Source: Balneolaceae bacterium (GTDB lineage Bacteria > Bacteroidota > Rhodothermia > Balneolales > Balneolaceae). From it: a stretch of DNA of 64,000 nt. Below, piece by piece: positions 32,646-64,000 of the stretch. Both the position numbers and the translations under genes were made by a program. Under the pieces are notes generated by a model that worked only from the letters and a program-made list of their open reading frames with translations, ran no database searches and was not told the DNA's origin. The stretch spans positions 1 through 64,000 of the forward strand of contig JAXHMM010000012.1 in assembly GCA_034521445.1 (NCBI GenBank), given 5' to 3'. Every line of letters starts with the position of its first letter. Within the stretch, counting starts at the first letter, position 1.

Positions 32646-35231
32646 CTACCCGTGTTCCTGGCGCAGCACCTACGGGGCGTACTTGCGGTAGACGCTGCGG
32701 CTGTTGAGCATGCCGATGGCGATGGTGAGGGCGGTGACGGCGGCGGTGCCCACGACAATCACCCATAGGGTCGGGCACGAAGTCCAGCTCGAAGTACCAT
32801 CCCGCCAGCAGCCAGGTGGCACCCAGCGAGAGAATGCAGTCCCGTAAGCGCGGACAGCAGCCCAGGAAGAGGTACTCCACCGACAGGATTTTGACAATCT
32901 GCGCCTTGCTGGCGCCCAGTGGTGCGCAGGCAGGGTGCTCTACGGATGCGCTGGTAGCGACTGGTGGCCACGGAGCTGGCCAGCACGATGAGTCCGGTCA
33001 GAATACTGAAAAGCGCCATAAACTGGATGGCAAAGGAGATCTGGTCGATGAAGTCGGTTGATGGTCTCCAGCACCCGGCTGATGTCGATGGCCGAGACGT
33101 TGGGAAAGGCCTGCGACCACCTGCCTGCTGGATGGAGGCGGCCGCCTGCCGGTCGGCCGTCCGCTGATGGTCACCCAGATCTGGGGCGCCCGCTCCAGCA
33201 CGCCGGCGGGAAAGAGCCATGAAGAAATTGGGACTCACCCGCTGGAAGTCACCTCCCGATGCTGCCCACAGTAGGCCTGCACCGGCACGCCCTGCACGTC
33301 GAACGTGAGGCTGTCGCCCAGCTCCAGGTTCAGGTCCTGCGTGATCTCGCGGGAGGCGCTCGACCGGCGGCACCTCGACGGTCGGCCTACCCGAGCCCGT
33401 AGAGGTGCCTTCACCAGGGTCTCGGTTTCGGTCGAGCGAATCGCGGTAGGTGGCGCGGTACTCGCGGTTGAGGGCCCAGCCGCTCACCCCGGTCGGTCGG
33501 TGTCGCCTGCACCGATCGGCCGGCGCTGCCCCCGCAGGTGGGAGATGCGCATGTGTGACCATGGGCACATTCTGAATGATTCGGCCCCCGCCGCCGCGAT
33601 GATCTCGCTGACGCGGTCGTTCTGGTCGGACTGAATATCAAAAAGCACCAGGTCGGGGCGTCCTCGCGGGAGGCGAATTCCAGCTCGCCCATGAGCATGT
33701 CCTGGCTGAAGTAGAGGGTGCTGACCATGCAGCATGCCGAGTCCCAGCGAGAGCATGAGCGCCAGCCGAGGTCTGGTCGTTGGGACGGTAGAGGTTGGCC
33801 AGTCCCTGTTGCGCCAGACATAGGGCCAGCAGGAGGGGAAGCGGCGCTTCACCGGCCGCATACGAGCAGCCGGCGCCACGCCGCAGAGGCAGTCCAAAGC
33901 GCCAACCAGGATGCCCAGCGCTGGGAGATGCCCTCCGACCCTCACAGCTTTGGGTCGGCGGCGTTGCGTCGGCCGGTAGACGGTGAGTGCGACGACGGCG
34001 TGCATACGGACCCGTCAGCGGGTGCGCCGGAGCAGGCGAGGTGATGAAGATCCCTTCGAGAGTGCCAGCAGGGCGTACAGGGGGGAGGCCTTGCGGAGGG
34101 CGAGCAGGGGGCAGCAGGGCGAAGACCAGGGCCACGCCCGTGCCCGTCAGCAGGCCCAGTCCAATGGCCAGCCAGGAAATAGCGCAGAATGACACTCTAC
34201 CGGCAGGAAGGTGCTGAAGAGGCCGGGCAGCATATACTGCAGGGCCGATGCCGATGAGCGCGCCTGCCAGTGCGCCCAGGAAACCGAGCACCAGGGCCTG
34301 GATGAGGAAGATGCCGGTGACCTGCCGGCCGGAGGCGCCGAAGCAGCGCAGCACCGAGGCGGTGTTGATTTTGCGGGTGATGTAGACGTGGATGGAGCTG
34401 GCAACCCCTATGCCGCCCAGCAGCAGGGCGATGAAGCCCACCAGGTTGAGAAACGTACCCAGGTTGTCCACCGCCTCGCCCAATTCCTGCTGGCGCTCCT
34501 CCACCGTGTCGTAGCCCAGGTCGTATTCGGGCTCCTGGGCTTCGGTGAAGCGGTCGTGGCCTCCTCGATCTGTTCGAAGTCGCGCTCCTCGTCGAACCGG
34601 AAGTACGGTATTGTCGTCGATGCGGCTGCCGCGCTGGACCAGGTTGGTGGAGTCCAGCCAGGCCTTGGGTATGAATATGCGCGGGCCGACCATGGAGATG
34701 GCAAGATCCTGCCGGGGATCTTGAGCAGGGAGCCTGCCGATCTCGAAGGTGACCTGTCCGATTTTCACCGAATCGCCCGGCTGCAGCCCGAACTGGGTCA
34801 TCAGGGTGTGGTCCACCAGCGCGCGCCTGCCCGCCTGGTAGGTGCGGGCGGCGGAGGCGGGCTGGGTCTCCAGCTCCCCGTAGAAGGGAAAGCCGCCCTC
34901 CACGGCGTGGATGTCCGACAGCCGCGTGCCCTTGCCGGGGAAAGAGGGCCATGGAGGGGAAGTCCACCACCGTCGACTGCTCCCCGCCGAGGGAGTCGAA
35001 GAAGGCCTGCTGTTCGGGCGTGAAGGGGTCCTCGGAGTCGATCTGCAGGTCAGCCCCCAGCAGCTCTTTGGCCTGGCGGTCAATGGTGTCAGCGTTGAGG
35101 CTGTCTCGGAAGGAGGTGATGGCCACCTGGGCGGCCACGCCGATGACGATGGCCGAGATGTAGACCAGACAGCCGCTTTTTGTTGGAGCGGCGTCCCGCC
35201 ACGCCATTTTCCATGTCCAGGTGCTGAACAT
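32646..35231 (-). CDS. ybbP: FtsX-like ABC transporter permease (YbbP type)
   Basis: Large permease, about 860 residues, of the YbbP/MacB-FtsX kind that exports or extracts substrates with a LolD-like ATPase. It begins MFSTWTWKMAWRDA followed by a first helix (CLVYISAIVIGVAAQVAI), then a periplasmic domain, and a three-helix FtsX core (NLVGFIALLLGGIGVASSIH, TGIFLIQALVLGFLGALAGA). A second core lies near the C-terminus (MALFSILTGLIVLASSVATS, VGTAAVTALTIAIGMLNSR). The C-terminus YRKYAP...VLRQEHG contains an in-frame TAG in the assembled sequence, probably an error; the end is taken at 32646. Many frame changes. The ATPase lies 51 bases upstream, and the esterase is divergent, the same order as E. 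coli tesA-ybbA-ybbP. Confidence 0.85.
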
Positions 35232-35282
35232 AGGGCTAGCGGCTCTTGGCGTCGGTTCCGACGGCAGCTTGCCGCCGTCTGC

Positions 35283-35967
35283 TCATCGCTGTCCCGGATG
35301 GCGCCGCTGCTGAAGGCGGATCGCCCGCTGGCACTTGCGGGCCAGTTCCAGGTCGTGGGTGACCAGCACCAGGGTGGTGCCGGAGGCCCGGTTCAGCTCA
35401 AACATGAGGTCTTCGATGGTGCCGCCGGTCTCGGCATCCAGGTTGCCCGTGGGCTCGTCGGCGAAGAGGATGCGCGGCCGGTTGATGAAGGCACGGGCGA
35501 TGGCCACGCGTTGCTGCTCCCCGCCCGAAAGCTGGGTGGGATAGTGACTGGTGCGTTCTCCCAGGCCCACCTGCTCCAGCAGGTCGAGGGCGTGGTCGCG
35601 CACCCTTCCGGTAGCCTCGCCCCGCAATTCCAGCGGCACCATGACGTTTTCAAGGGCGGTGAAGCGTGGGCACCAGCTGAAAGGTCTGGAAGATGAAGCC
35701 CACGTGTTCGTTACGGACCCTGGCGCGCTGGTCCTCGTCCAGCGCGCCCAGCCGCACCCCGTTGAGCACCACCTCGCCCGCGGAGGGGCGGTCCAGTCCG
35801 GCGCAGAGCCCGAGCAGGGTGGTTTTGCCGCTGCCCGAGGGACCCACGATGGCGCAGGTGGTGCCCTCCTCCACGGAGAAATCGACGTGGTCGAGCACGG
35901 TGAGCTCGCGGTCGCCGCTTCTGAATTGCTGGGTAAGATTCGTAACTTCCAGTATGGCCTTGTCCAT
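35283..35967 (-). CDS. ybbA: ABC transporter ATPase (YbbA/LolD type)
   Basis: ATP-binding partner of the permease downstream. Start ATG 35967 gives MDKAILEVTNLTQQF. Visible are Walker A GPSGSGKTTLL, the Q-loop region VGFIFQTFQLVPTL, the signature LSGGEQQRVAIARA, Walker B RILFADEPTGNLD and the H-loop VTHDLELA. About 228 residues, usual for the family. One frame change near 35665. The gene is divergent from the TesA-like esterase at 36182. Confidence 0.92.
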
Positions 35968-36181
35968 GGTCTCCAGCCGGGTTGAAATGCTGGTTGAAGG
36001 TGCTGGGTTGAATAGCAAGGTGCGAATAACGTTCCGTTGCCAGCCGGCAAATCGTTCCGCCGTACTGCAGCCTCCCGACCGGAACGCGGCAGGCGCGCCG
36101 CCTGGAGTTTTGGGCTGCCGGGGACGGCGCGGATTTCCAGCGCGGGACCGTTCGGCCTCCTACGAATATAAACGGCAAAAG

Positions 36182-36875
36182 ATGAGTCTTCCGTTAATGC
36201 ATGTTAAACCTTATGTCCTGGCGCTCCTGCTCCTGCTGGCAGGCGTGGCCGGCGCGGCCGTGGCACAGGGCGGGGAGGGGGCGTGGAGGCGGAGGGCGCG
36301 CCCAGACCGAATCCATGCGCATCCTCTTCGGCGACGGCATCACGGGCCGGATTCGGGTCGGCGAGGAGAGGCCTTCCCGCGCTGGTGCGCCGGCGCATCG
36401 ATTCGCTGGGCTGGAACTTGCCGGTCGTCAACGGGGGACTGAGCGGGGAGACCTCGGCCGGGGGACTCCGCCGCATCGACTGGATGCTGCGCCGGCACGT
36501 GGACCTCTTCGTGCTGGAGCTGGGGGGCAACGACGGGCTGCGCGGCATCGACCTGGCCTCCACGCGGCAGAATCTGCAGCAGATCATCGACAAGGTGCGA
36601 AACGCCTACCCGGAGGCGCGTATCGTGATCGCCGGCATGCAGGTGCCGCCCAACCTGGGACCCGGACTACACCGGGCGTTTCGAGTCGATGTATCCCGAG
36701 CTGGCCCGGCGGAACGACGCCACGCTCATTCCCTTGCTGGATGGAGGGTGTCGGCGGCTACGAGGAATTCCATGCAGAACGACGGCATTCACCCAACGCG
36801 CGGGGCCATGAAAAGATGGCCGAGACCGTCTGGGAGGCCATCCGGCCCATCCTGCAGGAGATGCGCGCCTCCTGA
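36182..36875 (+). CDS. tesA: TesA-like SGNH esterase/lysophospholipase
   Basis: Exported arylesterase/lysophospholipase of the SGNH family. ATG 36182 (MSLPLMHVKPYV) leads into a signal peptide (LALLLLLAGVAGAAVAQG). Block I reads LFGDGITG in place of the usual GDSIT, in a region with frame slips, so the nucleophile serine cannot be confirmed from this sequence. Block II is NGGLSGETSAGG, block III LELGGNDGLRG, and block V the Asp-His pair NDGIHP. About 230 residues. Divergent from ybbA with 214 bases between. Frame changes near 36290, 36370, 36660, 36740, 36800; the stop is TGA at 36873-36875. Confidence 0.87.
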
Positions 36876-38708: not shown

Positions 38709-39668
38709 TCACCCGCAAAGCACCTTTTTCAGCTTCTCGGCTGCAATATTGGCCCCGCAGATCACCACTGCGGTGGTCCGGCCGGCGAAGCGCTCCGGCT
38801 CGCGCAGCAGGGCGGCCACAGCCACCGCGGCCGACCCCTCCACCAGCTTGTGGTGGCGGGAAATCATCCCGCGGATGCCCTCCTCGATCTCATTTTCAGG
38901 CACCAGGATGAATTGGTCTACGTAGTTCCGGCAATAGTCGAATGTAATGGCATTGCGTTCGAAGCCGCCGGCCGAGCCGTCGGAAAGGGTGGGGCGGGTC
39001 TCCACGTCACGGTATTCTCCCGCCCGCACCGAAGCGGACATTTCGGGGGAGTTTTCCGGCTGGGCGCCGAGGATGCGCACCTCAGGGTCGCGGTCCCGTG
39101 CGTGACAGGCCAGTGCCGAGATGAGTCCGCCTCCCCCGACCGTGGCCAGGATCGGTCGTCGGGGCGGGTCCCTGCTCCCAGATTTCGGCCGCAATGGTAC
39201 CCTGCCCGGCAACCACCTGCAGGTCGTTGTAGGGGCTCACGTAGACCCATCCCTTTCTCTTCGGCCAGCTGACGATGTCGCCTTCGGCTCAGTAGGGGTC
39301 CTCGGCATAGATGCTCCAGCTCTGGCGCCCAGGAGGAGATGCCGCCTCCGCCTTCGATTCGTCGGCCCCGTGGGGAGGAAGACCTTGCCCTGCATGTCCA
39401 GCAGGTGCAGCGCGCGGGCGAATCCCTGCCCGTGGTTGCCGGTGGAGGCGGTTACCGGCAGGGCCTCGATGCCCTGCTCGCGCAGCCAGAGCAGCTTGTT
39501 GAGGGCGCGCGGGCCTCGAAAGAGCCGGTGTGCTGTTCGCTCTCCAGCTTCAGCCAGACCTCCGCCCCCGACGGCCCCGCTCAGCCAGCGGGAGTGCACA
39601 AGGGGCGTGCGGAGCACCTTGCCGCGGAGGCGGCGGTGGGCGTCGGATATTTCCCGGAGAAGAGGCAT
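38709..39668 (-). CDS. Threonine/serine dehydratase-like PLP enzyme (fold type II)
   Basis: Likely threonine ammonia-lyase or serine racemase/dehydratase. ATG 39668 gives MPLLREISDAHRRLRGKVLR. Next come LNKLLWLREQGIEALPV, the substrate loop TASTGNHGQGFA, the phosphate-binding glycines ATVGGGGLISAL, and the C-terminal KLVEGSAAVAVAALL and VVICGANI. About 320 residues. In the PLP-lysine motif (normally SFKxRG) the assembled codon at 39515-39517 reads GAG (Glu), giving TGSFEAR; a missing base five positions on shows the region is error-prone. Frame changes near 39540, 39500, 39370, 39290 and 39170. A second, intact-lysine homologue lies at 63137-64000. Confidence 0.85.
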
Positions 39669-39780
39669 AGGGGCGCCATCGCTGGATTTGGGTGTCTGTT
39701 GCAGGGCTTTCCTGCGGAATATAGGCAAATTTACGGGAGGCGTAAGGGCAGGGCACTGGGCTCTGCGCGGTAGATGGGGG

Positions 39781-39827
39781 CAATAAAGAAGGGGCACGGG
39801 AACCGTAGACCAATTTCCCCGTGCCCC
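39781..39827 (-). terminator. Rho-independent terminator of the sigma/DUF4097/DUF5916 operon
   Basis: On the minus strand GGGGCACGGG pairs with CCCGTGCCCC (39818-39827 with 39791-39800; AA/TT extend it with one bulged base) and is followed by TTCTTTATTG. It lies 86 bases beyond the DUF5916 stop, before the dehydratase gene, and closes the long minus-strand operon. Confidence 0.8.
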
Positions 39828-52549: not shown

Positions 52550-54393
52550 TTATTCCGTCGGCAGGCCTTCCATCTCCATTATGGTGAGGGCGTTGGTGGT
52601 AGGGCAGGGGCCGGGCTTGAGTTTGTATTCGAAGCTCATGCGTCCGTCGCGGATGGTCTCCTCGAAGTGCCAGTTGGTGAGGGAGGGGATCTCCTCCTCC
52701 AGGGCGGCCAGCTCCAGGTCGTGGGTGGATACCAGTCCGATGGCGTGGCGTCCGGCGACGGTTTTCAGGAAGGCGGTGCTGCCCTGCATGCGCTCGCGGT
52801 TGTTGGTGCCCTTGTAGATCTCGTCCACCATAAAGAAGAGGGGCGGCTCGCCGGGGCGCTCCAGCTCCTCGAGCAGGCGCCTCAGGCGCTTGACTTCGGC
52901 GTAGAAGTGGGAGAGTCCCTGGTCGAGGGAGTCGGTGACGTTGATGCTGCTGAAGATGCGGAAGGGGACGGTCTCCAGACTCCGCGCGTTGACGGGTCCC
53001 CCGGCGAAGCAGAGCGCCAGGTTGATGCCCAGGGTGCGCAGGAAGGTACTCTTGCCCGACATGTTGGAGCCGGTAATCAGCAGCAGATCGCCCAGGGATC
53101 CTATTTCCACATCATTGGTGACCCTCTGCCCGGCGGGAATGAGGGGATGGCCGATGCCCTCGGCCCGGAAGGGAGGCTTGCTGTCCTTCTCCTCCAGGTC
53201 TCGGGGCAGGGCGAAGGTGTAGTCGGGATTGAGCCAGGCCAGGTTGGCCAGCGAGCAGAGCGCCTCCAGGCTGTAGAAGCGGTCCATCCAGCTTTCGAGG
53301 CGGGGACGCAGGTCTTCCTTGTAGCGTTCCAGCTTGCGGGTGAACCAGAGGTCCCAGGGCACCATGGCGTTGACGACCACCCAGCCGAGCTGGCTCTTCT
53401 GGAGGGCACCGGCCGCCGCCAGGCGGACGATGCCGCGCAGGTAGCGGGAGGGACGCTGCTCCCCGCTGCAGAAGGGGGCACAAAAGCGCTTCAGCTCCGA
53501 ACCCTCCCGGTAGCGGAAGGACTCCAGGTAGCCCAGGATGGCGTGAAAGCGGCTCAGCAGCTTCTCCATCTGGTAGGACTCCTCGAAGAGCCCGCGCACC
53601 TTGCCGCTGTGAAAATTGTAGAGCAGCAGATAGGTCACAAAAGAGAGGATTACCCAGGGGGCTGCCAGTCCGGCAAGCCAGAGCGCGAGCAGCAGCCAGT
53701 TGAGTGCGGCCAGGCCACCCAGCTGGAGCAGGGCGGGTCCAAATCGCACCTCGCGCGGGTGTTCGAGATGCTCCAGGAGCTGCTGCATGTCCCAGTCGGT
53801 GTCCTCGCGACGGCTGCGGGCGCGCCGCGCGTTGAGGGCCAGCCGGTCGCGAAAATGGGGCAGTTCGCGCAGTTCCCGCACCAGGGCGGTGCGCCGGGGC
53901 AGTTCGTCCTCCGGCGGGCGGCCCGCGGTCAGCCAGCCCAGCAGCCTCTCGCTGCCCCCCGGTAGATGGTAGTGTCGGACAGGTGGTGCAGGGAGTGAAG
54001 GCCGGCCAGGTTGAGGTCCCGTGCAAAAGGATGGTCGGCATCGGGATCCGTCGCCTCGGGCGCCGGAATACCCTCCCAGTCCAGTTCCATGCGGTGCAGG
54101 TGTTTTTCGCGCAGCTCCTTCCAGATGCGTGCCTTCTCGCAGGCGTCGTCGACGGCGCGGTGGCGGAGGACCAGCGCCGCAAAGCTCCCTGCAAAGGCCA
54201 GGCAGCAGAGCACAAAGAGCCAAACCAGATCCGTGCGCGCGGCCACGTAAATAAGTCCCATTCCCCCGAGAAAGGTTAGCAGGCGCAGCGTGGAGAGGCG
54301 CTTGCTGCGCTCCTCCAGGGTCTGCACGGCCTCCGAAAGGCGGCGTACCTGGTTTTGAAGGGCCTTCTTCAGGCTGTGACGGGAATAGGACAT
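52550..54393 (-). CDS. Membrane-anchored MutS-family ATPase (MutS domain V only)
   Basis: About 614 residues. The N-terminus has a coiled-coil-like start (LKKALQNQVRRLSEAVQTLE) and two hydrophobic helices (LLTFLGGMGLIYVAA, LVWLFVLCCLAFAGSFAALV). Two more membrane helices lie mid-protein (LGGLAALNWLLLALWLAGL, PWVILSFVTYLLLYNF). The C-terminal third is the MutS ATPase: Walker A GSNMSGKSTFLRTL, Walker B PPLFFMVDEIYKGTNNRER, and STHDLELAALEE. No mismatch-recognition domain (no FxE motif) is present, so it is not a repair MutS. One frame slip near 53955. A Smr-domain gene lies 16 bases upstream, and the stop abuts the repeat tract. Confidence 0.88.
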
Positions 54394-57707: not shown

Positions 57708-58914
57708 CTACCGGGGCCGGGTGGCGAAGGCCAGGTCATCCCGGTCGATTTCGACGCCGGTGTGGTCCAGCACCTCCCCGTGGTACTGCCTTGCGGCATA
57801 GAGAAAGTATTTGGCCTCCTCCCGGTCGCGGTCCTTGTACCAGCGGTAGGAATCCACGTAGCCCATGGCCACCGAGAGGGAGTCCGATCGCGAGAGCGTT
57901 TCCCCGGCTCCCTCCGGCAGGGGCACCGTGAGAGAGGTGCCCGCATAGATGAGGTCGGGATGGTCGATGCCTCCCGTATTGGTGCCGTAGATCCAGGGCC
58001 ACAGGTAGGGATCGCCGTATTCCCGGCGGGCCATGCTCCAGAGGGTCTGTCCATCGTCCTACCTGCCGGCTGACGGTCTCGTTGTCGCCTGTGATCTCAT
58101 TGAGGGCCTCTTCCGATTTGCCGGCGGGGGCGGGGGATTCGCCGGTCTCTTCCACCTGGGTCACGGAGGGGGAGGCGGGCTCCTCGAAAACCTGGTCGAA
58201 TACCTCCGAGCTGAGCATCCAGGTGGCCGCCACGATCACCATAAGCACAAAGGCGGCCGCAACGATCAGGGGCCAGTTGGCGTCGGAGCGCCTGTGCCGG
58301 CGGCTCTTGCGGAAGCCGAAGCGGTCTTCTTCTGCTTCGCCGTCCTTCTCTATTCGAGAGGAAGAGGCCGGAGGATCAAAATCTTCTTGTTTCTTGCTGC
58401 TATCTCCCTGGCCGCCAGAGTCTTTAGACTGGTCAGTATCGTTCATTTCAGGCGCATATTCCACCACCGAGCTTGGCGCGGGACGGGCCTCATCGCCGCT
58501 CCCGCCGTCCGGTCCCCGGCCGCCGGACCGGGTGGGAGGGGCGGTGGGAATAAAGTCGGACTGCCGGGAGGTGGTATCCTCCTCCGGCTCATCATCGTCC
58601 AGCAGCTCCGGCTCGCGGTGGGCGTAGGGTGCGTTGACACGCTCTCGCAGCTCCTTGTAGGCTGTGAAGGTCACGCGGTTGTGGGCCGGAATGGTCATGG
58701 GCTCCCCGGTCTGGGGATTGTAGCCCTCGCGCTCGTCCACTTCCCTGAGCCCGAATTTGCCCAAGCCCGCAATATTCACCTTGCGGTCCTCCTCCAGTCC
58801 CCGGTGGATCACCGACACCAGTCCCTTCATGAAGTCGTGCGTGAACTGCTTGGAGCGGTCGGTCTCCTCGGACATGGCGTCGATCAGCTCCTGGAATGTT
58901 ACTTTTTCGCTCAT
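57708..58914 (-). CDS. HU-like DNA-binding domain - membrane helix - LysM fusion protein
   Basis: About 402 residues. Residues 1-95 are an HU/IHF-like domain (MSEKVTFQELIDAMSEETD, VNIAGLGKFGLREVD, YNPQTGEPMTIPAHNRVTF). A long acidic, Pro/Ser-rich linker follows, then a basic stretch RKSRRHRRSD before one transmembrane helix (WPLIVAAAFVLMVIVAATW). A periplasmic linker leads to a LysM-like domain in joined frames (SMARREYGDPYLWPWIYGTN, HPDLIYAGTSLTVPLPEG). One frame slip near 58050. Its ATG overlaps the stop of the upstream HU gene (ATGA). By layout it could tether DNA inside to peptidoglycan outside; see findings. Confidence 0.85.
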
Positions 58915-59201
58915 GACGTCTCCTCCAGCTCTTTCATTTCCTCCTTGAGGCCTTTGCTGGGCGAAAATCTGACCACCCGCTTGGGCGGGAGCCTCATGTA
59001 GGATTCGTGATGGGGATTGTAGGAGCGGCGGGCATCCCGCGTGTGCGTCTCGAAGGTTCCCAGTTCGGGTATGCTGTAGCCCCGGCCTTCGGAGAGATTC
59101 CTTTTCAGGGTCTCCACGGCGGTATCCAGCAGACGTCGCGTTTCGGCCTTGCTCAGGTCCCGGCTTTCCGCCAGGGCTTCTACCACGTCACGGGTGTTCA
59201 T
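58911..59201 (-). CDS. HU-family DNA-binding protein
   Basis: Small nucleoid-associated protein, about 96 residues: MNTRDVVEALAESRDLSKAE, LLDTAVETLKRNLSEGRGYS, IPELGTFETHTRDARRSYNP, and LPPKRVVRFSPSKGLKEEM. The beta-arm phrase RRSYNPHHES replaces the common GRNPxTGE. ATG 59201 is chosen because it starts at the usual helix; ATG 59222 adds seven residues. The stop overlaps the HU-LysM start by four bases, so the two are translationally coupled. The 208 bases before aconitase hold divergent promoters that I could not resolve. Confidence 0.9.
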   Translation of the reverse strand: MNTRDVVEALAESRDLSKAETRRLLDTAVETLKRNLSEGRGYSIPELGTFETHTRDARRSYNPHHESYMRLPPKRVVRFSPSKGLKEEMKELEETS

Positions 59202-63090: not shown

Positions 63091-63136
63091 CAATGAGTTG
63101 CGGGCTTTCAGCGTTCCGGCGAGGCGCCGTCCGGAC

Positions 63137-64000
63137 TCACCAGGGCAGGTGGTCCAGGTCCACATTTCCCCCGGAGATGATAATTCCCACCGTGGCGCCC
63201 TCCGCCTCCACATGGCCGCCCAGCAAGGCCGCCACAGGGACGGCCGAGGAGGGCTCGATGATGATTTTCATGCGTTCCCAGACATATCGCATGGCCTCTC
63301 GGATCTCCTCCTCGGAGACGGTGACCATGTCGTGCAGGTGGCGCTGCATGCAGGCGAAGGGCAGCTCGCCCAGGGAGGTGCGCAGCCCGTCGGCGATGGT
63401 GTCGGGGTTTTCCACGGGCTGAAGCCGCCCGTCGCGGAACGAACGGAAGGCGTCGTCTGCCCGCTCGGGCTCGCATCCGACCACGCGGGCCGAGGGGGCC
63501 ATGCCGGCCGCGGTGACGGCCGTCCCGCTTATCAGTCCCCCGCCCCCCACGGGGGCCAGGATAAGATCCAGGGGAGGGGCGTCCTCCACCATTTCCAGAG
63601 CGGACGTGCCTTGTCCGGCAATAATGCGCGGGTCGTTGTAGGGATGGATGAAGGCGGCCCCGGTCTGCTCCACCACTTTGAAGGGCGTCCTCGCGTCCCT
63701 GCTGGGTGGACTCGCAGAGGGTGATCCGGGCCCCGTAGCCCTCCACGGCGCGCCTCTTCACGCCCGGGGCATTTTCTGGCATGACAATGTGGGCGGAAAT
63801 GCCTTTCATGCGCGCAGCCAGGGCTACCGCCTGGGCGTGATTGCCTGAGGAGTGGGTGGCCACGCCCCCGCGGGCCTGCCCCTCTTCCATGGAGAAGATG
63901 GCGTTGGAGGCCCCGCGGAACTTGAAGGCTCCCACCTTCTGGAAGTTCTCGCATTTGAGCAGCACACGTGCGCCGGTCCGCTCGTCCAGCTGGCTGCTGC
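63137..64000 (-). CDS. Threonine/serine dehydratase or serine racemase-like PLP enzyme (partial at window end)
   Basis: Fold type II PLP enzyme cut at its N-terminus by the window edge. The PLP-lysine motif is intact (KVGAFKFRGASNAI). Then come THSSGNHAQAVALAA, the phosphate-binding LAPVGGGGLISGTAV, and the C-terminal IIEPSSAVPVAALLG and VGIIISGGNVDLD. One frame slip near 63680 (DAL...KVVEQTGAAFIHPYNDP). The EPSSAVPVAAL and GGNVDLD ends are typical of serine racemase/threonine dehydratase. It lies 47 bases upstream of the FAD oxidase gene on the same strand; a shared operon for hydroxy-amino-acid and D-amino-acid metabolism is a fair inference. Confidence 0.88.

What the first reader, a model, noticed from the sequence alone, without database searches (positions are those of the whole stretch)
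57708..59201. HU protein coupled to an HU - transmembrane - LysM fusion
One polypeptide joins an HU-like DNA-binding domain, a basic pre-membrane stretch, one helix and a periplasmic LysM-like domain. HU-SPOR fusions are known in Bacteroidota; a LysM version would physically link nucleoid and peptidoglycan. The ATGA overlap with a stand-alone HU gene suggests the two act as a heterodimer or in fixed ratio, possibly in chromosome anchoring or segregation.
Basis: partly seen in the sequence, partly recalled or inferred. Interest (0 to 1): 0.7.

Follow-up and report, generated by a model that had tools for sequence, protein, structure and literature searches.

The report
HU pair anchored to cell wall
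Next to a small DNA-packing (HU) gene lies a second HU gene fused to a membrane helix and a cell-wall-binding (LysM) domain; this two-gene set recurs in two distant branches of the bacterial phylum that contains Bacteroides-like gut bacteria, and could physically tie the chromosome to the cell wall.

Summary
The architecture is real, but in this assembly the fusion ORF carries a +1 frame break at about 58055-58065, so the table-11 protein does not contain the LysM part. Relatives settle it. 74 of 92 genomes of the window's family encode the fusion, and nearly all in one uninterrupted frame of 340-584 aa. The layout is HU, long acidic linker, one transmembrane helix, LysM, then a short helical tail. 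The break is most likely an assembly error, because other genes in the window are broken too.
The LysM call holds by profile (E. coli Kbp LysM, E 5.5e-11) but stays below Pfam's cut-off.
A stand-alone HU gene sits directly upstream in all 54 pairs examined, start/stop overlapping in 47. Across the family the two genes are kept or lost together: 72 both, 18 neither, 2 cut by contig ends. Bacteroidales-like genomes carry the same pair, and an HU tree groups fusion HU with fusion HU and partner HU with partner HU. It is therefore an old two-gene Bacteroidota module.
The basic DNA-binding arm is mostly on the partner, which favours a heterodimer.
Best reading: a heterodimeric HU tether linking DNA to peptidoglycan; DNA and wall binding are untested. 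The same genome also has an HU-SPOR protein.

The parts
58911..59201 (-). HU-A: stand-alone HU-like protein, 96 aa, first gene of the pair
   Evidence: PF00216 74.4 bits over cut-off; family profile A4 137 bits
58911..58914 (-). ATGA overlap: stop of HU-A and start of the fusion gene
   Evidence: sequence; overlap of 1-11 bases in 47 of 54 pairs across the phylum
58633..58896 (-). HU-B domain of the fusion (residues 7-94)
   Evidence: PF00216 81.8 bits, 85.5 bits on the genome
58288..58632 (-). cytoplasmic linker, acidic overall (residues 95 to about 209)
   Evidence: 29 D/E against 17 K/R in residues 96-215; the same bias in nearly all relatives
58288..58323 (-). basic juxtamembrane stretch RFGFRKSRRHRR (residues 198-209)
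   Evidence: 7 K/R in the 20 residues before the helix, 0 in the 20 after it: N-in, C-out by the positive-inside rule
58213..58269 (-). single transmembrane helix (residues 216-234)
   Evidence: Kyte-Doolittle mean 2.69 over 19 residues; one clear peak in every relative
58055..58065 (-). frame break (+1): one base too many or two too few between the TM frame and the LysM frame
   Evidence: GC3 switch; continuous read with GTAG as one codon; absent from relatives
57921..58062 (-). LysM-like domain, predicted periplasmic
   Evidence: profile A2 against PDB: Kbp LysM E 5.5e-11; Pfam LysM 17.4 bits against cut-off 20.9 in relative L006
57711..57920 (-). C-terminal helical tail, conserved in the family, TPR-like by eye
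   Evidence: alignment A2; only weak TPR-type hits, E 0.15 and worse
57708..57710 (-). stop codon of the fusion gene in the LysM frame
   Evidence: ORF list

Best explanation
The two genes make a membrane-anchored HU heterodimer. The stand-alone HU (HU-A) pairs with the HU head of the fusion (HU-B); HU-A brings most of the positive charge of the DNA-gripping arms, HU-B brings the anchor. A long flexible acidic linker and one transmembrane helix connect the head to a periplasmic LysM domain that holds peptidoglycan. The result would be a tether between nucleoid DNA and the cell wall, by analogy with HU-SPOR proteins probably used in positioning or segregating the chromosome. Shown here: the architecture, the conserved pairing and joint inheritance, and the uneven arm charge. 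Inferred: heterodimer formation, topology, DNA binding, peptidoglycan binding and the cellular role.
For: Architecture intact in 15 of 15 relatives read in full and found in 74 of 92 family genomes. HU-A lies directly upstream in 54 of 54 pairs, overlapping in 47. Joint presence/absence: 71 both, 18 neither, 0 HU-A alone, 3 fusion without a scored HU-A; of those 3, two sit at contig ends and in the third HU-A is present with a diverged arm. Absences fall in 10 genera, so the pair was lost together several times. The pair keeps together in at least three gene neighbourhoods. HU tree: fusion HUs of the family and of the Bacteroidales-like genomes form one side of a branch (99/92), partner HUs another (97/89). 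Arm net charge, medians: partner +3 and +5, fusion -1 and 0, canonical HU +4. LysM by profile. Positive-inside pattern around a single helix.
Against: Fusion HU lacks R55 and R61 everywhere, and P63 in the Bacteroidales-like clade. In one genome (G099) both HUs have lost the usual arm, so DNA binding may be weak or dispensable there. LysM does not reach Pfam's cut-off, and LysM domains also act outside peptidoglycan (Kbp is a potassium-binding protein). 18 family genomes, several of them 98-99% complete, lack the pair, so it is not essential; nearly all genomes also have HU-SPOR, so the role may be redundant. No usable structure model was obtained (single sequence, pLDDT 41).
Confidence: 0.45

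Rival explanations
1. Membrane-integrated sensor-regulator: the LysM and helical tail sense wall state or a ligand and change DNA bending or transcription by the cytoplasmic HU heterodimer, like ToxR/CadC-type one-component regulators (these from memory).
For: Same order of parts: cytoplasmic DNA-binding head, one helix, periplasmic domain. The best LysM match is Kbp, an ion-binding protein. Conserved helical tail after LysM.
Against: HU heads bind DNA with little sequence specificity (general knowledge); no conserved regulon-like neighbours, since the surroundings change while only the pair stays.
Confidence: 0.2
2. The HU heads are protein-protein modules, not DNA binders, as proposed for CCDC81-type HU domains and seen for the HTH of RodZ (both from memory); the complex would scaffold wall or division machinery.
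For: Neutral to acidic fusion arm, loss of R55/R61, of P63 in one clade, and of the arms of both partners in G099.
Against: R58 in 41 of 42 and P63 in 42 of 42 fusion HUs of the family; the partner arm is basic with P63 in 38 of 39; a fold without DNA binding would not need these.
Confidence: 0.2
3. In this particular strain the frame break is genuine and the gene makes an HU-TM protein without LysM, so the module is decaying here.
For: The break is in the assembly, also when the whole genome is searched.
Against: The LysM frame still shows strong coding bias up to its stop (GC3 0.84) and a good match to the family (E 1.8e-39). Other genes of the window are broken in the same way, e.g. two PLP-enzyme genes split into complementary halves, which points to indel errors in the assembly.
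Confidence: 0.07
4. A programmed frameshift makes both an HU-TM protein and the full HU-TM-LysM protein.
For: The shift is confined to a short stretch (58055-58065) by a stop in the LysM frame just upstream.
Against: No relative has a shift; all encode the fusion in one frame.
Confidence: 0.03

Closest known systems
HU-SPOR proteins of Bacteroidota (HU/CCDC81-type HU domains, TM, SPOR)
   Same: HU head, TM helix, periplasmic peptidoglycan-binding type domain; one is encoded in the same genome (G000:C6:176108-177235; SPOR 39.8 bits); matches to that protein in 123 of 129 genomes of the order
   Different: The C-terminal domain is LysM plus a helical tail, not SPOR; the HU-B head is a full-length HU of another clade; it has a translationally overlapped HU partner; patchier distribution
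HU/IHF family (HU-alpha/HU-beta, IHF heterodimers)
   Same: Two paralogous HU chains that appear to work as a pair, as in IHF and E. coli HU
   Different: One chain is membrane-anchored with a periplasmic domain; arms are unequal in charge
Kbp (YgaU), BON-LysM potassium-binding protein of E. coli
   Same: Closest solved LysM domain to the tail (E 5.5e-11)
   Different: No HU, no membrane helix; BON domain instead
RodZ and ToxR-type bitopic proteins (from memory)
   Same: Cytoplasmic nucleic-acid-binding-type fold, single TM helix, periplasmic domain
   Different: HTH or winged helix instead of HU; no LysM

Membership tests
HU/IHF (PF00216) | HU fold by profile above the curated cut-off, both genes | tested here: met
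   81.8 and 74.4 bits, cut-off 22.4; all 15 fusions match
HU/IHF (PF00216) | DNA-contact arm residues (R55, R58, R61, N62, P63) | tested here: inconclusive
   Fusion: R58, N62, P63 kept, R55 and R61 lost; partner: R/K55 and P63 mostly kept, R61 is Y
HU/IHF (PF00216) | dimerisation and DNA bending | not testable with these tools
   Only indirect: joint inheritance and core residues F50 and F79 kept in both chains
LysM (PF01476) | match above Pfam's gathering score | tested here: not met
   17.4 bits in L006 and 16.6 in L109, cut-off 20.9; the window's tail does not ring
LysM (PF01476) | homology to solved LysM domains by family profile | tested here: met
   Kbp LysM 5.5e-11, phage LysM protein 8.4e-9, TsaP 2.1e-5
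LysM (PF01476) | binding to peptidoglycan | not testable with these tools
   Needs pull-down with sacculi
HU-SPOR / HU-CCDC81 | C-terminal SPOR domain | tested here: not met
   No SPOR hit in the fusion or its relatives
HU-SPOR / HU-CCDC81 | HU-CCDC81_bac profile above cut-off | tested here: not met
   HU-CCDC81_bac_2 at 25.2 bits against cut-off 35 for HU-A; no match for the window fusion

The most novel reading that the evidence does not exclude
A previously undescribed, old Bacteroidota two-gene system in which a heterodimeric HU head is fixed through the inner membrane to peptidoglycan, a direct mechanical link between nucleoid and cell wall that runs in parallel to HU-SPOR.
Probability: 0.35. 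Interest if true: 0.8.

Novelty: new variant of a known kind. Interest (0 to 1): 0.6.

Why it matters
How Bacteroidota position and segregate their chromosomes, and whether bacterial nucleoids are physically held by the cell wall, is poorly known. A conserved heterodimeric HU with a wall-binding anchor, present also in Bacteroidales-like genomes whose relatives can be manipulated genetically, would make that question directly testable. It would also give HU proteins a structural role at the envelope, and it makes a clean test pair: two genes, kept or lost together.

Tried and rejected
Ten paper searches found nothing on HU-LysM (most with three or more terms, in an open-licence library only), and the paper I remember on HU/CCDC81 clades is not held, so novelty against the literature is not proven. 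Mirror-tree correlation of the two HU chains (0.86 and 0.85) was not used as evidence because shared species history gives the same. A complementary L/F swap at core position 47 (partner L with fusion F in the family, the reverse in the Bacteroidales-like clade) is suggestive but rests on about two events, and the window itself has L in both. A real lesion and a programmed frameshift were considered and judged unlikely. An IS-like or phage origin was not pursued: the pair sits among housekeeping genes.

Full report
WHAT IS THERE. On the minus strand of the window, 59201-58911 encodes a 96-aa HU-like protein (HU-A) and 58914 starts a second gene whose first 94 residues are another HU domain (HU-B); both score far above Pfam's cut-off. 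The genes share ATGA. After HU-B come an acidic linker, a basic patch (RFGFRKSRRHRR) and a single strong hydrophobic helix, residues 216-234.

FRAME BREAK. The table-11 ORF of the fusion does not contain the LysM part; it runs 392 aa in the wrong frame. Third-position GC is 0.78 in the HU frame before the junction; after it, 0.45 in that frame and 0.84 in the frame that carries DDGQTLWSMARREYGDPYLWPWIY.... Reading one four-base word, GTAG at 58059-58062, as one codon gives a 401-aa protein. Relatives are uninterrupted here. Other genes of the window are broken similarly: two PLP-enzyme genes are each split into complementary halves of PF00291, one at 63.1-63.9 kb and one at 38.7-39.8 kb, and a MutS-like gene looks split at about 53.9-54.2 kb. 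The break is therefore most likely an assembly error.

FAMILY. Of 92 genomes of the same family, 74 carry the LysM tail at E below 1e-27, and a full-length profile finds the HU-TM-LysM protein in open frames of 340-584 aa, apart from copies cut by contig ends. Genomes of the same order outside the family, and of the same class, show only separate HU or generic LysM proteins. In the phylum, clear relatives appear in other families: most lie between rimO and moxR/DUF58 in Bacteroidales-like genomes, again with a stand-alone HU directly upstream and LysM at the C-terminus, and 36 of 295 sampled genomes of that order match at E below 1e-24. Names of these genomes are not shown by the tool; 'Bacteroidota' and 'Bacteroidales-like' are inferences from gene content and neighbourhood.

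PAIRING. In 54 of 54 pairs HU-A precedes the fusion; in 47 the genes overlap by 1-11 bases. Within the family, 71 genomes have both, 18 neither, none HU-A alone, three the fusion alone. Two of the three have the fusion at a contig end; in the third, G099, HU-A is there but with a diverged arm. So there is no true exception. The absences lie in 10 genera, so several joint losses are needed; the Fisher value (2e-16) ignores relatedness, and about a third of the genomes without the pair are incomplete. The neighbourhood changes between clades (aconitase and Dabb in one; a HemW-like gene and others in another) while the pair stays. The HU tree puts fusion HUs of both clades on one side of a branch (99/92) and partner HUs on one side of another (97/89), with canonical HUs apart: the module is orthologous, by descent or transfer.

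DNA ARM. Against canonical HU, the fusion HU has lost R55 and R61 but in the family keeps R58 (41/42), N62 (38/42) and P63 (42/42); the Bacteroidales-like fusions have V in place of P63 (13/15). Median net charge of the arm: canonical +4, partner +3 and +5, fusion -1 and 0. The partner thus carries most of the basic surface, which fits a heterodimer in which the fusion supplies the anchor. In G099 both chains have lost the usual arm, a warning that DNA binding may not be universal.

LYSM. Pfam's LysM model stays below its cut-off (17.4 and 16.6 against 20.9), but the family profile matches the LysM of E. coli Kbp at 5.5e-11 and other LysM proteins. After LysM comes a conserved helical tail of about 60-70 residues that looks TPR-like but has no significant hit.

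RELATION TO KNOWN THINGS. The same genome encodes a true HU-TM-SPOR protein; that protein has matches in 123 of 129 genomes of the order, also in those without the LysM pair. The LysM pair is therefore an additional, not a replacing, system. No paper on an HU-LysM fusion was found in the open-licence library, but the searches were narrow and the one remembered review of HU clades is not held.

MECHANISM. Most likely a membrane-anchored HU heterodimer tethering DNA to peptidoglycan. Shown: parts, order, pairing, joint inheritance, arm asymmetry. Inferred: dimerisation, topology, binding at both ends, role in chromosome positioning. Rivals are a wall-sensing regulator and a protein-protein scaffold.

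Noticed in passing
G000:C6:176108-177438 (L036, L037, L143): A true HU-TM-SPOR protein in the same genome, preceded by a 64-aa second HU piece that overlaps it; matches in nearly all genomes of the order.
   Followed up: partly
L151 (G099:C125:26564-27950 region): Both HU-A and HU-B have lost the usual DNA-binding arm in the same genome, while the pair, helix and LysM remain.
   Followed up: partly
window 38709-39797 and 63108-63965: Two PLP-dependent (PALP) enzyme genes, each split into complementary halves by a frame break; signs of indel errors in the assembly.
   Followed up: yes
window 52550-54393: MutS-like gene (MutS_V) split into two overlapping ORFs; a relative (L113) has it in one frame of 614 aa.
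   Followed up: partly
window 32700-36200: ABC transporter permease and ATPase genes look broken into several frames.
   Followed up: no
L109 4369-5607: A transposase-like gene (IS256-type by eye) sits between the HU-TM-LysM gene and moxR in one Bacteroidales-like genome.
   Followed up: no
L152 (G053:C22:170021-170395): A BON-LysM protein of Kbp type occurs in a family genome that lacks the HU-LysM pair.
   Followed up: no
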